Origin: an uncultured Bacteroidales bacterium
Lineage (GTDB): Bacteria > Bacteroidota > Bacteroidia > Bacteroidales > UBA11471
NCBI GenBank assembly: GCA_944325415.1
Contig: CALUZW010000002.1
Location: 124,001 to 188,000, forward strand
Direction of reading: 5' to 3'
DNA: 64,000 nt
Shown here: positions 53,341 through 60,083 of the stretch, one piece after another
Layout of the letters: every line of letters begins with the position of its first letter
Position numbering within the stretch: the first letter of the stretch is position 1
Position numbers and translations under genes: made by a program
Notes under the pieces: generated by a model
Seen by the model: the letters and a program-made list of their open reading frames with translations, nothing else
What the model was told of the DNA's origin: nothing
Databases searched by the model: none

Positions 53341-54819
53341 ATGTTACGAAAAATCAGAATCGCAGCAGCACTCATCTGCTTTTTACTCATCACACTTCTG
53401 TTTCTCGATTTCACGGGAAGCCTTCACACATGGTTCGGTTGGCTGGCAAAGATACAATTTCTCCCCGCCGTACTGGCTCTGAATGTGGCGGTCGTCGCAG
53501 CACTCGTCGTCTTGACCTTGGTGTGCGGGCGGGTATACTGCTCGGTCATCTGCCCGTTGGGAGTATTCCAGGATATTGTCTCCAAGGTCAGCAGCCTCCG
53601 CCGCAGAAAAAAACACCGCTTCTCCTATTCACCGGCCCTCTCGTGGCTTCGATACGGAGTATTGGTGCTTTTCGTCATCGCTCTCGTCGCCGGCATCTCC
53701 TCGTTTGTAGTGCTGCTGGCACCGTACAGCTCCTACGGACGTATGGTACAGAATCTTCTCGCCCCTCTCTACGGCTGGGGAAACAATGCACTGGCCTACA
53801 TGGCCGAACGTGTAGAGAGTTATGCCTTCTACTCCACAGATGTGTGGTTGAAAAGCCTGCCGACATCCCTGGTGGCGCTTCTCTCCTGCATCATTGTCGC
53901 CATACTGGCCTGGCGCAACGGACGCACCTATTGCAACACCCTTTGTCCCGTAGGCACGGTACTGGGCCTGTTATCGCGCTACGCTTGGCTGAAACCCCGC
54001 ATCGACACCACGAAATGCAACCGCTGCGGACTATGCGCCAGGAGTTGTAAGTCGTCGTGTATCGATGCCAAAACACACCGCATCGATTACAGCCGCTGCG
54101 TCAGCTGCATGGACTGTGTCGAGGTATGTACCCAGAAGGCTATCTCCTACGGGCGTCCACTCAAAACCGCACCTCGCACCGAGAAAGAAGATGGGCCCAC
54201 CGCACGCCGGCAATTTCTCGCAACGGCCGGCATACTGATGGCCGGCGCCATCGAAGCCCAGGAAAAGAAAGTCGACGGCGGTCTCGCCCCCATTATCGAC
54301 AAGAAGATTCCCCATCGGGCCACGCCCATTGTTCCGCCCGGAGCCGAAAGCCTTCAAAACCTGCGGCAACACTGCACAGCCTGCCAACTCTGCGTGTCGG
54401 TATGTCCCAATCAGGTTTTAAGACCATCGGGCAAACTGGCATCTTTTATGCAACCCGAGATGTCGTACGAGCGCGGATACTGCCGGCCCGAATGTACCAA
54501 ATGTTCGGAGGTATGCCCGGCCGGCGCCATCCATCTACTGACCAGAGAGGAGAAATCGGCCACAAAAATAGGCTACGCCGTTGTAGTCAGAGAAAACTGC
54601 ATACCGCTTACCGACGGCGTTTCGTGCGGGAACTGTGCCCGCCACTGCCCCACCGGCGCCATACAGATGATTAAGGAAATCGTCAACGGGAAAGAGGTAG
54701 AACTGCCGGTTGTCAACACCGAACGGTGCATTGGGTGCGGCGCTTGCGAGAATCTGTGTCCCAGCCGCCCGTTCAGCGCCATCTACGTCGAAGGAATAGA
54801 ACATCATCGTACCATCTAA
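53341..54819 (+). CDS. Polyferredoxin: NapH-like membrane part fused to a NapG-like Tat-exported ferredoxin
   Basis: 492 residues. Residues 1-215 carry about four membrane helices with two NapH/CcoG-type motifs, CGRVYCSVICPLG (63-74) and GRTYCNTLCPVG (194-205). Two 4Fe-4S clusters follow (Cys226/229/232/236 and 253/256/259/263). Then comes TARRQFLATAG (288-297), a twin-arginine motif with a hydrophobic stretch ending AIEA near 306. The C-terminal 185 residues hold four more Cys motifs (345-355, 381-392, 420-436, 463-473), as in NapG. This implies a quinol-linked electron carrier whose second half is moved by Tat. It is the first gene of a seven-gene operon, with 12 bases to the next gene. Confidence 0.9.
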   Translation: MLRKIRIAAALICFLLITLLFLDFTGSLHTWFGWLAKIQFLPAVLALNVAVVAALVVLTLVCGRVYCSVICPLGVFQDIVSKVSSLRRRKKHRFSYSPALSWLRYGVLVLFVIALVAGISSFVVLLAPYSSYGRMVQNLLAPLYGWGNNALAYMAERVESYAFYSTDVWLKSLPTSLVALLSCIIVAILAWRNGRTYCNTLCPVGTVLGLLSRYAWLKPRIDTTKCNRCGLCARSCKSSCIDAKTHRIDYSRCVSCMDCVEVCTQKAISYGRPLKTAPRTEKEDGPTARRQFLATAGILMAGAIEAQEKKVDGGLAPIIDKKIPHRATPIVPPGAESLQNLRQHCTACQLCVSVCPNQVLRPSGKLASFMQPEMSYERGYCRPECTKCSEVCPAGAIHLLTREEKSATKIGYAVVVRENCIPLTDGVSCGNCARHCPTGAIQMIKEIVNGKEVELPVVNTERCIGCGACENLCPSRPFSAIYVEGIEHHRTI

Positions 54820-54831
54820 CACTGCAACATC

Positions 54832-56232
54832 ATGGATAAAGAGAATCATAAAGAAAAAAGAAATATAAACCGTCGGGATTTTCTGAAAATCGTAGGAGCT
54901 GGTACCCTCTCGGCCACAGCCCTTCTTTACGGCTGTGACAACAAGAATACGGCGGGAAGCAACACCTTGCAGCCATCGGGTACGATGACCTATCGCACCA
55001 ACTTGCACGGCGAACAGGTATCGCTGCTGGGATATGGTTGCATGCGCTGGCCCACCCGAAAGGATGAGAATGGTAAAAGTGTTCTCGACCAGGAGACCAT
55101 CAACCAGCTGGTCGACTATGCGATGGAACACGGAGTCAATTATTTCGACACATCACCCGCCTACTGTAAAGGTGAATCAGAGCGGGCCACAGGTATTGCC
55201 CTGAGCCGACACCCGCGCGACAAATACTTCATCGCCACCAAGTTGTCAAACTTTTCGCCCTCGACATGGAGCCGCGAAGCCTCCATGTCCATGTACCAAA
55301 ACTCATTCAAGGAGTTGCAGGTCGACTACATCGACTACATGCTGCTGCACGGCATAGGTATGGGCAACGACGCCATGAAGGAATTTGAAGCCCGGTACAT
55401 CGACAACGGCATGCTCGAATTCCTGCTCGAAGAGCGCAAGGCCGGCCGCATCCGCAACCTCGGTTTCTCCTACCACGGCGACATCAGGGTATTTGACTAC
55501 CTGCTCTCGCGGAACGATTACTACCAGTGGGATTTTGTGCAGATACAGCTCAACTACCTCGACTGGCACCACGCCAAGGAGATAAACCGGCGCAATACCA
55601 ATGCCGAGTATCTGTATCAGGAACTTGAAAAAAGACACATTCCCGCCATCATCATGGAACCGCTGCTGGGAGGCCGACTGTCAAAGGTGCACGACCACAT
55701 CGTGGCCCGGTTCAAGCAGCGCGAGCCCGACCGCAGCGTCGCCTCCTGGGCGTTCCGCTTTGCCGGTTCCTTTCCCGGTGTGCTGACCGTGCTGAGCGGC
55801 ATGACCTACATGGATCACCTGCAAGACAACCTCACCTCTTATTGCCCCTTGCAACCGCTCACCGACGAAGAGTTCGACTTTCTATACGAAACAGCCAACC
55901 TCATGATGCAATATCCCTCGATACCCTGCAACGACTGCAAATACTGTATGCCTTGTCCCTACGGCATCGACATACCTGCCATTCTGCTGCACTACAACAA
56001 GTGCGTCAACGAGGGAAATCTGCCGGAGAGTTCGCAAGCCGAGAACTACCGGGAAGCCCGCCGGGCCTTCCTCGTAGGATACGACCGCAGCGTGCCACGC
56101 CTGCGCCAAGCCTCGCACTGCATAGGATGCCGGCAATGCGAGCCGCACTGTCCGCAAAACATACGCATCGCACGAGAAATGCAGCGCATCGACCACTTTG
56201 TCGAAAACCTAAAACAGGGAAACGTGTTCTGA
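54832..56232 (+). CDS. Tat-exported lipoprotein: aldo/keto reductase with two C-terminal ferredoxin clusters
   Basis: 466 residues. NRRDFLK (Arg14-Arg15) is a clean twin-arginine motif and LLYGC (Cys35) a lipobox, so it is folded in the cytoplasm, exported by Tat and lipidated. The aldo/keto reductase barrel (about 50-370) has the tetrad Asp106 (YFDTSPAY), Tyr111, Lys137 (IATKL) and His173 (LLHGIG). The last 100 residues hold CNDCKYCMPCPYGI and CIGCRQCEPHCPQNI, two 4Fe-4S sites. Such enzymes are usually cytoplasmic and NADPH-dependent. Electrons here may instead come from the polyferredoxin next door, because NADPH is absent from the periplasm. It is 9 bases before the DUF1893 gene. Confidence 0.92.
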   Translation: MDKENHKEKRNINRRDFLKIVGAGTLSATALLYGCDNKNTAGSNTLQPSGTMTYRTNLHGEQVSLLGYGCMRWPTRKDENGKSVLDQETINQLVDYAMEHGVNYFDTSPAYCKGESERATGIALSRHPRDKYFIATKLSNFSPSTWSREASMSMYQNSFKELQVDYIDYMLLHGIGMGNDAMKEFEARYIDNGMLEFLLEERKAGRIRNLGFSYHGDIRVFDYLLSRNDYYQWDFVQIQLNYLDWHHAKEINRRNTNAEYLYQELEKRHIPAIIMEPLLGGRLSKVHDHIVARFKQREPDRSVASWAFRFAGSFPGVLTVLSGMTYMDHLQDNLTSYCPLQPLTDEEFDFLYETANLMMQYPSIPCNDCKYCMPCPYGIDIPAILLHYNKCVNEGNLPESSQAENYREARRAFLVGYDRSVPRLRQASHCIGCRQCEPHCPQNIRIAREMQRIDHFVENLKQGNVF

Positions 56233-56241
56233 TCGAAACCT

Positions 56242-56667
56242 ATGGAAGAGCTTATAAAGACGTTACACGAGGGCGGATACTCCTGCGTCATACAACAGGG
56301 CAATGTCATACGCACGTTTACTCAACGAGGGGTAAACGACCTCTACGCACTGCTCACCGAAGAGCCCCACTTTCTACGGGGAGCATCCGTGGCCGACAAA
56401 GTCATAGGCAAGGCGGCCGCTGCCCTGCTGGTGGCAGGAGGCATAAAGGAACTCTATACGGGAGTCATCAGCAACGGTGCCCTCGAACTGCTTGCCCAGG
56501 CCGGCATACCGACGGCCTACGACAAGAAAGTACCCTATATCATCAACCGCACGCACACCGACCGATGCCCGCTCGAAAAACGTTGTGCCGAAGCAACTTC
56601 GGCCGCCGAATGTCTACCCCTCATCGCGAGCTTCGTCGAGGAAATGAAACTCCGCAGCCATGTATAG
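56242..56667 (+). CDS. DUF1893-family protein (cytidine-deaminase-like fold)
   Basis: 141 residues, no signal peptide, hence cytoplasmic. The chain reads HEGGYSCVIQQGNVIRTF, then GASVADKVIGKAAAALLVAGG, then ISNGALELLAQAGI and a Cys-rich end (DRCPLEKRCAEA). This matches DUF1893, whose structural prototype (Thermotoga TM1506) has a cytidine-deaminase-like fold but lacks standard deaminase zinc ligands. The pocket could bind a small heterocycle. Its stop overlaps the receptor start by eight bases, giving translational coupling to a TonB receptor. Function unknown; association with an iron-sulfur redox operon is notable. Confidence 0.87.
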   Translation: MEELIKTLHEGGYSCVIQQGNVIRTFTQRGVNDLYALLTEEPHFLRGASVADKVIGKAAAALLVAGGIKELYTGVISNGALELLAQAGIPTAYDKKVPYIINRTHTDRCPLEKRCAEATSAAECLPLIASFVEEMKLRSHV

Positions 56668-58546: not shown

Positions 58547-59059
58547 ATGCAGACCTCAACCGTAAGACTCTACTCTCTCTCCTACCGCCAGGCAAAGACC
58601 TACGGCATCGCCCTTCTTTTTGTGGCCGGCAACATCGTGCTGCCGCAACTCTTCCACCTGCTGCCACAAGGGGGTGTAACCTGGCTGCCCATCTATTTCT
58701 TCACCCTGATTGCCGCCTACAAATATGGCTGGAAGGCCGGCCTGCTCACAGCCGTACTTTCGCCGGTTGTCAACAGCCTGCTCTTCGGTATGCCCGCCGC
58801 AGCGGCCCTACCCGCCATTCTGCTGAAATCGGGTCTCCTTGCCGCTGCCGCCGCCATAGCTGCGGCCCGCTTTCAAAAAGCCTCGCTGGTGCTGCTTGCC
58901 GCAGTTGTCGTGTGCTACCAGGGTCTGGGGCTGATAGGCGAATGGGCTCTGACCGGAGACCTCGGCCTGGCCACCCAGGATTTCCGCATAGGAATCCCCG
59001 GAATGATTCTGCAAGTGGTAGGCGGATATTTTTGCATCAATTACATAATACGTAAATAA
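58547..59059 (+). CDS. ECF transporter S-component-like membrane protein
   Basis: 170 residues with about six membrane helices. The order of short loops and the Ala-rich helix [29 protein letters not shown] resemble S-components (substrate-binding subunits) of energy-coupling factor vitamin/metal importers. [34 protein letters not shown] is the usual second to fourth helix. No EcfA or EcfT gene is in this window, so it is an orphan subunit or works with a shared module. Its stop overlaps the TatA start by one base. Together with the TonB receptor it could form a two-membrane path for one ligand. Alternatively it is an unrelated small membrane protein. Confidence 0.72.
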
Positions 59060-59283
59060 TGAATACACTACTGCTAATCGGAGGCATCGGCATGCAGGAA
59101 ATCCTTGTCATTGCCCTCATCGTGTTACTGCTCTTCGGCGGGAAAAAGATTCCCGAACTGATGAAAGGCATCGGCAAAGGAGTGCGCAGCTTCAAAGACG
59201 GTGTAAACGGTATTGAGAAAGAGGGCGAAAGCAACGACGGCCCGAACACCTCCAAATCCAAAGAAAACGACCAGCCCAAATGA
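59059..59283 (+). CDS. tatA: Sec-independent translocase protein TatA
   Basis: 74 residues. [36 protein letters not shown] has the TatA layout: one membrane helix, the FGG hinge, and an amphipathic helix ([14 protein letters not shown]), then a charged tail. TatA oligomers form the passage for folded twin-arginine proteins. The start at 59059 overlaps the preceding stop, and tatC begins four bases before its own stop (ATGA), so the two are coupled. There is no tatB, as usual in this phylum (TatAC type). At least two Tat clients lie in the same operon. Confidence 0.95.
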
Positions 59284-60083
59284 ATAGTCGGGAGAACGAC
59301 GCCACTCAAAGTTTTTGGGAGCATCTCGACGACCTGCGAGCTTGTCTCATAAGAATAGTACTGGTCGTTCTGGTGCTGGGTATCGCGGCTTTCCTGTTCA
59401 AAGAAGAACTCTTTGCCGTCATACTCGGTCCGCAAAACGAGCACTTCATTACCTACCGTCTTCTTGACAAGATAGGGAGCATCTGGGGTGTTGCTGCGGC
59501 ACCGTTCTCGGTCGAACTCATCAATACGGGCCTGGCCCGGCAATTCACGACACACATGACGGCCGCCATATATGCGGCTGTCTTGTGTGCATCGCCTTAT
59601 ATTCTCTATCAGCTGTTCCGATTTGTTTCGCCGGCACTTTACGTGAACGAGAAAAAATATGTCGTGCGGGCCGTCTCGTACAGCTATCTGCTGTTCATGG
59701 GCGGCGTATTGCTGAGTTATTTTCTCATCTTTCCGCTGACATTCCGTTTTCTCGGGACCTACCAGGTAAGCCCCGAGGTAGCCAATCTCATCACCCTGCA
59801 ATCCTACATGGACACGCTCATGACCATCACCCTCATGATGGGTGTCTTGTTTGAGATTCCCATCTTATGCTGGCTGTTTGCCCGCCTGGGTATTCTCACC
59901 GAGTCGTTCATGCGGAAATACCGCCGGCACGCCATCGTGGTCATACTCATCGTTGCCGCCATCATCACCCCCACGGCCGACGTGTTTACCCTCACTGTCG
60001 TATCTCTGCCCATATACCTGCTCTACGAGGGAAGCATCTGCATCGTGCGGCGCTCCCAGAGAAAAGAGATTCAAAATTCTTAA
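59280..60083 (+). CDS. tatC: Sec-independent translocase protein TatC
   Basis: 267 residues with six membrane helices. [14 protein letters not shown] (about 12-25) is the conserved N-terminal signal-binding region, and [22 protein letters not shown] near 225-247 the conserved sixth-helix motif. TatC recognises the twin-arginine pair of substrates such as those encoded at 53341 and 54832 and then recruits TatA. Linkage to specific substrates inside one operon is unusual because Tat genes are normally housekeeping. The gene ends 42 bases before a convergent AraC gene. Confidence 0.96.

What the first reader, a model, noticed from the sequence alone, without database searches (positions are those of the whole stretch)
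53341..54819. Twin-arginine motif in the middle of a polytopic membrane protein (dual Sec/Tat topology)
Residues 1-215 are membrane-spanning with NapH-type motifs. Residues 288-306 then read as a complete twin-arginine signal (TARRQFLATAG plus hydrophobic stretch), followed by a NapG-like ferredoxin with four Cys motifs. NapH and NapG are separate proteins elsewhere. The fusion would need Sec for the first helices and Tat for the folded ferredoxin, as described for some Rieske proteins.
Basis: partly seen in the sequence, partly recalled or inferred. Interest (0 to 1): 0.66.

Follow-up and report, generated by a model that had tools for sequence, protein, structure and literature searches.

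The report
NapH–NapG fusion with internal Tat signal
This gut-type bacterium makes one membrane protein that carries a second export signal in its middle, so two transport machines must build it; that kind of protein is already published, but this branch also shows a conserved cut site suggesting that the signal is clipped off and one gene yields two working electron-transfer proteins.

Summary
Window 53341-54819 encodes a 492-aa protein: four membrane helices plus two [4Fe-4S] motifs (NapH-like), Arg289-Arg290 plus a short hydrophobic stretch, then a four-cluster ferredoxin (NapG-like). This is a Bacteroidota branch of that kind.

New evidence that the internal motif is a Tat signal: 222 of 229 homologues have RR/KR; 187 of 189 carrier genomes have TatC; a Tat-exported partner gene (aldo/keto reductase lipoprotein or DUF362) adjoins it in 228 of 240 loci; one genome has NapH and NapG as separate genes, the signal then N-terminal. 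Where TatC has naturally lost Tyr100/Glu103, the contacts of the second arginine, the fusion's motif and the partner's signal are both RK (15 of 15 genomes; 16 of 16 with the residues have RR).

Likely new twist: a conserved Ala|Gln at 306|307 (clade 137/141; 17 expected) matches the Bacteroidetes Q-rule for signal peptidase I. I infer cleavage into two proteins; this is untested.

The parts
53341..54819 (+). NapH-NapG fusion polyferredoxin, 492 aa
   Evidence: ORF and domains; AlphaFold2 mean pLDDT 91.8, pTM 0.89
53341..54165 (+). NapH-like part, residues 1-275: four membrane helices, CxxxC(P) motifs at C67/C71 and C198/C202, and a 2x[4Fe-4S] segment (C226-C263)
54205..54210 (+). codons of Arg289-Arg290, the twin-arginine motif (ARRQFL)
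   Evidence: conserved RR/KR in 222/229
54211..54258 (+). signal h- and c-region, residues 291-306 (QFLATAGILMAGAIEA)
   Evidence: 14 uncharged residues, hydropathy too low for a good membrane anchor; the low-confidence stretch of the model lies at 275-322
54256..54261 (+). predicted signal peptidase I site Ala306|Gln307 (Bacteroidetes Q-rule)
   Evidence: A/G/S-Q conserved in 137/141 clade A homologues against 17 expected; Q-rule PMC5837995. Cleavage not shown
54259..54816 (+). predicted mature NapG-like ferredoxin, residues 307-492, 16 invariant Cys for four [4Fe-4S] clusters
54832..56232 (+). partner: aldo/keto reductase with 2x[4Fe-4S], Tat signal (RRDFLK) and lipobox-like LYGC; adjacent to the fusion in nearly all relatives of this clade
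   Evidence: Aldo_ket_red 2.8e-35; tetrad D106/Y111/K137/H173 and 8 Cys conserved in at least 97% of 150 homologues; adjacency
59059..59283 (+). TatA-like protein, 74 aa
   Evidence: ORF; homologous TatA linked in other loci; assignment by sequence resemblance only
59280..60083 (+). TatC, with E15- and E103-equivalents present
   Evidence: PF00902 1.1e-64, TIGR00945 above cut-off

Best explanation
The gene encodes a quinol-side electron-delivery module built by two export machines. Sec inserts four helices (inferred) and leaves the 2x[4Fe-4S] segment in the cytoplasm. The weakly hydrophobic segment after Arg289-Arg290 is not kept by Sec; TatC recognises it (strongly supported by co-evolution) and Tat exports the folded four-cluster ferredoxin (inferred from the published relative). 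Signal peptidase I then probably cuts between Ala306 and Gln307, and Gln307 becomes pyroglutamate, so the mature complex is a NapH-like membrane protein plus a separate NapG-like periplasmic ferredoxin (inferred from conservation only). Electrons would run from quinol through the NapH and NapG clusters to the Tat-exported, lipid-anchored aldo/keto reductase encoded next door (inferred from gene adjacency and family knowledge). My confidence is about 0.93 for the internal Tat signal, 0.6 for cleavage and 0.5 for the electron route; the figure below is for the Tat signal plus cleavage, leaving the electron route aside.
For: Internal Tat signal: RR/KR in 222/229 homologues; TatC in 187/189 genomes with the fusion against 143/203 without; a Tat-signal partner adjacent on the same strand in 228/240 loci, AKR or DUF362; NapH and NapG as separate overlapping genes in L318, NapG starting MDKSRREAIKK; RK in both the internal motif and the partner signal in 15/15 genomes whose TatC lacks Tyr100/Glu103, RR in both in 16/16 g91 genomes that keep them (and for G299); a third Tat substrate is also RK in all four E103-less genomes that have it; the second Arg contacts E103 and Y100 in the E. 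coli TatBC structure (PMC13323110). Export of a relative by Tat is experimental (PMC5449189). Cleavage: A/G/S-Q 13-24 residues after the pair in 137/141 of this clade (expected 17, shuffle maximum 31), 24/42 clusters of the other Bacteroidales branch (4.4) and 11/16 clusters of L232-L257 (1.5), but 1/14 in L258-L271 (1.5); Q-rule PMC5837995, including Ignavibacterium album at 77%; the hydrophobic run is short and the linker is the low-confidence stretch of the model.
Against: No export or cleavage experiment exists for this protein. In this clade the residues after the Ala-Gln (KVDGGLA) are conserved too, so Gln307 might be kept for another reason. Gln at the putative cut site of the neighbouring DUF362 Tat protein is much less frequent (21/80) and does not track that of the fusion (p = 0.8). 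The -3 residue in the window is Ile, acceptable but not ideal. Three homologues have LR or RL although partner signals look normal. The TatC association is not corrected for phylogeny. The side of the membrane on which the ferredoxin sits could not be read from the model. The electron donor and the substrate of the reductase are untested.
Confidence: 0.58

Rival explanations
1. Dual Sec/Tat protein as in Tooke et al.: Tat exports the ferredoxin and the segment stays as an uncleaved fifth membrane helix anchoring it.
For: Direct experimental precedent for a relative (PMC5449189); low hydrophobicity and following positive charges fit its handover model.
Against: Only 14 uncharged residues after RRx in this clade (median), and a strong Ala|Gln signature in most of the family but not in L258-L271.
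Confidence: 0.33
2. The C-terminal ferredoxin is cytoplasmic and the RR pair is just a positively charged linker.
For: The window's segment does not reach the TIGR01409 model; three homologues lack the pair.
Against: TatC co-occurrence, partners with Tat signals, split gene with N-terminal Tat signal, co-variation with the TatC binding site.
Confidence: 0.05
3. Sec alone exports the C-terminal domain through the segment acting as an ordinary fifth helix or Sec signal.
For: Lysine or arginine would both satisfy Sec; a Q-rule site is typical of Sec substrates (PMC5837995).
Against: Low hydrophobicity with positive charges behind it; a four-cluster ferredoxin is expected to fold in the cytoplasm; R290 conservation and its co-variation with TatC contact residues are unexplained by Sec.
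Confidence: 0.04

Closest known systems
Polytopic polyferredoxin (PFD) family, delta proteobacterium MLMS-1 Q1NSB0 (Tooke et al. 2017, PMC5449189)
   Same: NapH-NapG fusion, cytoplasmic-side and four exported-side cluster motifs, RR directly before a weakly hydrophobic segment, positive charges after it
   Different: That paper treats the segment as a permanent fifth membrane helix of about 22 residues; here it is about 14 residues and ends in a conserved Ala|Gln cut signature. The examples it lists include no Bacteroidales, and the sections read discuss no partner gene.
NapGH quinol dehydrogenase
   Same: Same two modules and cysteine pattern; in L318 the modules are separate genes
   Different: One gene here; scores far below the NapH/NapG cut-offs; no NapA found in the genome; the partner is an aldo/keto reductase or DUF362 protein
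Actinobacterial Rieske protein QcrA (dual Sec/Tat)
   Same: Sec helices followed by a Tat-dependent segment and an Fe-S domain
   Different: Not homologous; uncleaved anchor
Bradyrhizobium FbcH cytochrome b/c1 polyprotein (from memory, a lead only)
   Same: One gene, two respiratory subunits separated at an internal signal by signal peptidase
   Different: Internal signal uses Sec, not Tat; unrelated proteins

Membership tests
Tooke polytopic polyferredoxin (PFD) | NapH-type membrane part fused to NapG-type ferredoxin in one ORF | tested here: met
Tooke polytopic polyferredoxin (PFD) | Twin-arginine motif conserved directly before the last hydrophobic segment | tested here: met
   RR/KR in 222/229
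Tooke polytopic polyferredoxin (PFD) | Last segment of low hydrophobicity with C-terminal positive charges | tested here: met
   best 19-aa hydropathy 0.77, QEKK follows
Tooke polytopic polyferredoxin (PFD) | Tat-dependent export of the C-terminal domain | not testable with these tools
   shown experimentally only for MLMS-1
Tooke polytopic polyferredoxin (PFD) | Segment remains as fifth membrane helix | tested here: inconclusive
   short segment and A|Q signature argue against; no direct test
NapGH quinol dehydrogenase | Scores above the curated NapH and NapG cut-offs | tested here: not met
   74 against 234 bits and 63 against 269 bits
NapGH quinol dehydrogenase | Serves periplasmic nitrate reductase NapA | tested here: not met
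   no TIGR01706 match in the genome (83% complete); neighbour is an aldo/keto reductase
NapGH quinol dehydrogenase | Quinol oxidation | not testable with these tools
   inferred from homology
Tat substrate | Recognition by TatC at the E15/E103 site | tested here: met
   indirect, by evolution only: co-variation of the internal motif with TatC Y100/E103 in 31 genomes
Signal peptidase I substrate under the Bacteroidetes Q-rule | Small residue at -1 and Gln at +1 after a signal h-region | tested here: met
   A306|Q307; 137/141 in clade
Signal peptidase I substrate under the Bacteroidetes Q-rule | Actual cleavage and pyroglutamate | not testable with these tools
   needs N-terminal proteomics

The most novel reading that the evidence does not exclude
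A Tat signal inside a polytopic membrane protein is cut by signal peptidase I, so one Bacteroidota gene encodes a Sec-inserted quinol-dehydrogenase subunit and a Tat-exported ferredoxin as a precursor of two proteins; and natural lineages have shifted the Tat code from RR to RK together with loss of TatC Glu103/Tyr100, changing internal and N-terminal signals alike.
Probability: 0.55. Interest if true: 0.75.

Novelty: new variant of a known kind. Interest (0 to 1): 0.52.

Why it matters
It extends dual Sec/Tat assembly to a protein that is common in Bacteroidales (189 of 392 genomes sampled), including culturable Bacteroides, and offers a direct test of whether an internal Tat signal can be processed like an N-terminal one. 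The natural RR-to-RK change together with loss of TatC Glu103, a residue described as almost completely invariant in all three domains (PMC5539426), gives an evolutionary experiment on how Tat reads its signal. The conserved operon also points to an unstudied periplasmic electron-transfer route ending in an aldo/keto reductase.

Tried and rejected
Chance motif: rejected by conservation in 229 homologues. True NapGH: rejected by scores, partner genes and absence of NapA. Structural match to solved structures: none with this architecture; matches are to isolated ferredoxin modules. Correlation between the Q-rule site of the DUF362 partner and that of the fusion: none. TIGR01409 on the window's own segment: no hit. 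A crude Q-rule count on neighbouring Sec-type signals gave Gln as by far the commonest +1 residue (135 of 380) but is too noisy to use as a yardstick.

Full report
What is there. Window 53341-54819 encodes a 492-aa protein. Pfam and NCBIfam see NapH-type Fer4_5 motifs and several 4Fe-4S repeats; the NapH and NapG models match the two halves but stay far below their cut-offs. AlphaFold2 on 120 homologues gives a confident model (mean pLDDT 91.8, pTM 0.89) with four membrane helices and two ferredoxin modules. Confidence collapses only around residues 275-322, the segment holding Arg289-Arg290, a short helix (290-301) and Ala306-Gln307. The cluster cysteines are invariant in 120 homologues. Loop charges follow the positive-inside rule with the N-terminus and the first ferredoxin segment inside.

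Surroundings. Downstream on the same strand lie a Tat-signal aldo/keto reductase with two [4Fe-4S] sites, a DUF1893 protein, a TonB-dependent receptor, an ECF-like membrane protein, TatA and TatC. In 150 relatives the reductase keeps its catalytic tetrad and eight cysteines; those with a readable start have a twin-arginine (or, in a few, RK or KR) signal, nearly always followed by a lipobox-like x-x-G/A/S-C.

Is the internal motif a Tat signal? Five lines say yes. (1) RR or KR in 222 of 229 distinct homologues, while the residues around it vary. (2) 187 of 189 Bacteroidales genomes with the fusion have TatC, against 143 of 203 without (Fisher p = 4e-17, not corrected for phylogeny). (3) In 228 of 240 loci a partner that nearly always carries a Tat signal adjoins the fusion on the same strand: the aldo/keto reductase in 147, a DUF362 protein in 81. 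(4) In L318 the operon DUF362-NapH-NapG has the halves as separate overlapping genes, and NapG then begins MDKSRREAIKK, i.e. the internal signal becomes N-terminal. (5) Natural co-variation: in part of genus g91 and in the genome of L193, TatC has lost the equivalents of Tyr100 and Glu103, the residues that contact the second arginine in the E. coli TatBC structure (PMC13323110). In all 15 such genomes both the internal motif of the fusion and the N-terminal signal of the reductase are RK; in all 16 sampled g91 genomes that keep the residues both are RR. Three of the RK genomes (G793, G801, G815) also carry a second TatC that keeps Glu103. A third Tat substrate, a Gfo/Idh/MocA-family protein, is also RK in the four E103-less genomes that have it. 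One further genome (G016, L102) has an RK reductase signal while keeping Glu103, with Tyr100 changed.

Is it new? Dual Sec/Tat assembly of a NapH-NapG fusion was published in 2017, with Tat dependence shown for the MLMS-1 protein by reporter fusions and RR-to-KK substitution (PMC5449189).

What may be new. About 16-19 residues after the pair, a small residue followed by Gln is conserved: 137 of 141 in this clade (17 expected, at most 31 in 2000 shuffles), 24 of 42 sequence clusters in the other, mostly DUF362-linked Bacteroidales branch (4.4 expected), 11 of 16 clusters in L232-L257 (1.5 expected), but 1 of 14 in L258-L271. In the DUF362-linked branches the sequence behind the site is not conserved, so the pair is unlikely to be kept merely by its neighbours. 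Gln at +1 is the hallmark of signal peptidase I substrates in Bacteroidetes (PMC5837995; 71% on average, and 77% in Ignavibacterium album). With only about 14 uncharged residues and a hydropathy well below that of helices 1-4, the segment looks more like a cleavable signal than a fifth membrane anchor. I infer cleavage at Ala306|Gln307 and a two-protein precursor. This remains a prediction; counter-evidence is the lack of any correlation with the DUF362 signals and the conserved KVDGGLA that follows in this clade.

Function. By homology to NapGH the module should pass electrons from quinol across the membrane to periplasmic partners; the conserved partner here suggests the aldo/keto reductase is the acceptor. 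This is inference. No NapA was found in the genome, which is 83% complete.

Verdict. Observation confirmed; interpretation supported; known kind of system; a Bacteroidota variant with a probable internal signal-peptidase site and an unusually clean natural test of Tat recognition.

Noticed in passing
L300-L303, L350, L376-L395 (TatC); L077, L088, L097, L193, L351-L363 (fusions and reductases); L396-L399: Natural shift of the Tat code: TatC without Glu103 and Tyr100 goes with RK in place of RR in three different Tat substrates, in two Bacteroidales lineages (15/15 against 0/16).
   Followed up: yes
window 59059-60083: TatA and TatC are encoded in the same gene cluster as their likely substrates; TatC also lies near the fusion in about 30 of 200 relatives' loci.
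   Followed up: partly
window 54832-56232: Tat-exported lipoprotein-like aldo/keto reductase with two [4Fe-4S] sites and an intact catalytic tetrad; how such an enzyme is supplied with a nicotinamide cofactor or electrons outside the cytoplasm is unclear.
   Followed up: partly
L103, L105, L109, L120, L234, L248 and others, gene directly upstream of the fusion: DUF362 proteins with Tat signals are the constant partner of the second branch of the fusion family; function unknown.
   Followed up: partly
L318:649-3152: Naturally split version of the fusion: DUF362, NapH-like and NapG-like genes in a row, the last two overlapping by a few bases.
   Followed up: yes
L385, L394, L391 (G793, G815, G801), L304 (G299): Second TatC copies with the Glu15 equivalent read as Gly but Glu103 kept, in genomes that also have another TatC.
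   Followed up: no
L090, L091, L099: Three homologues with RL or LR at the twin-arginine position although partner signals are normal RR.
   Followed up: no
window 56242-56667: DUF1893 (TM1506) gene follows the reductase and does so in many relatives (63 of 200 loci).
   Followed up: no
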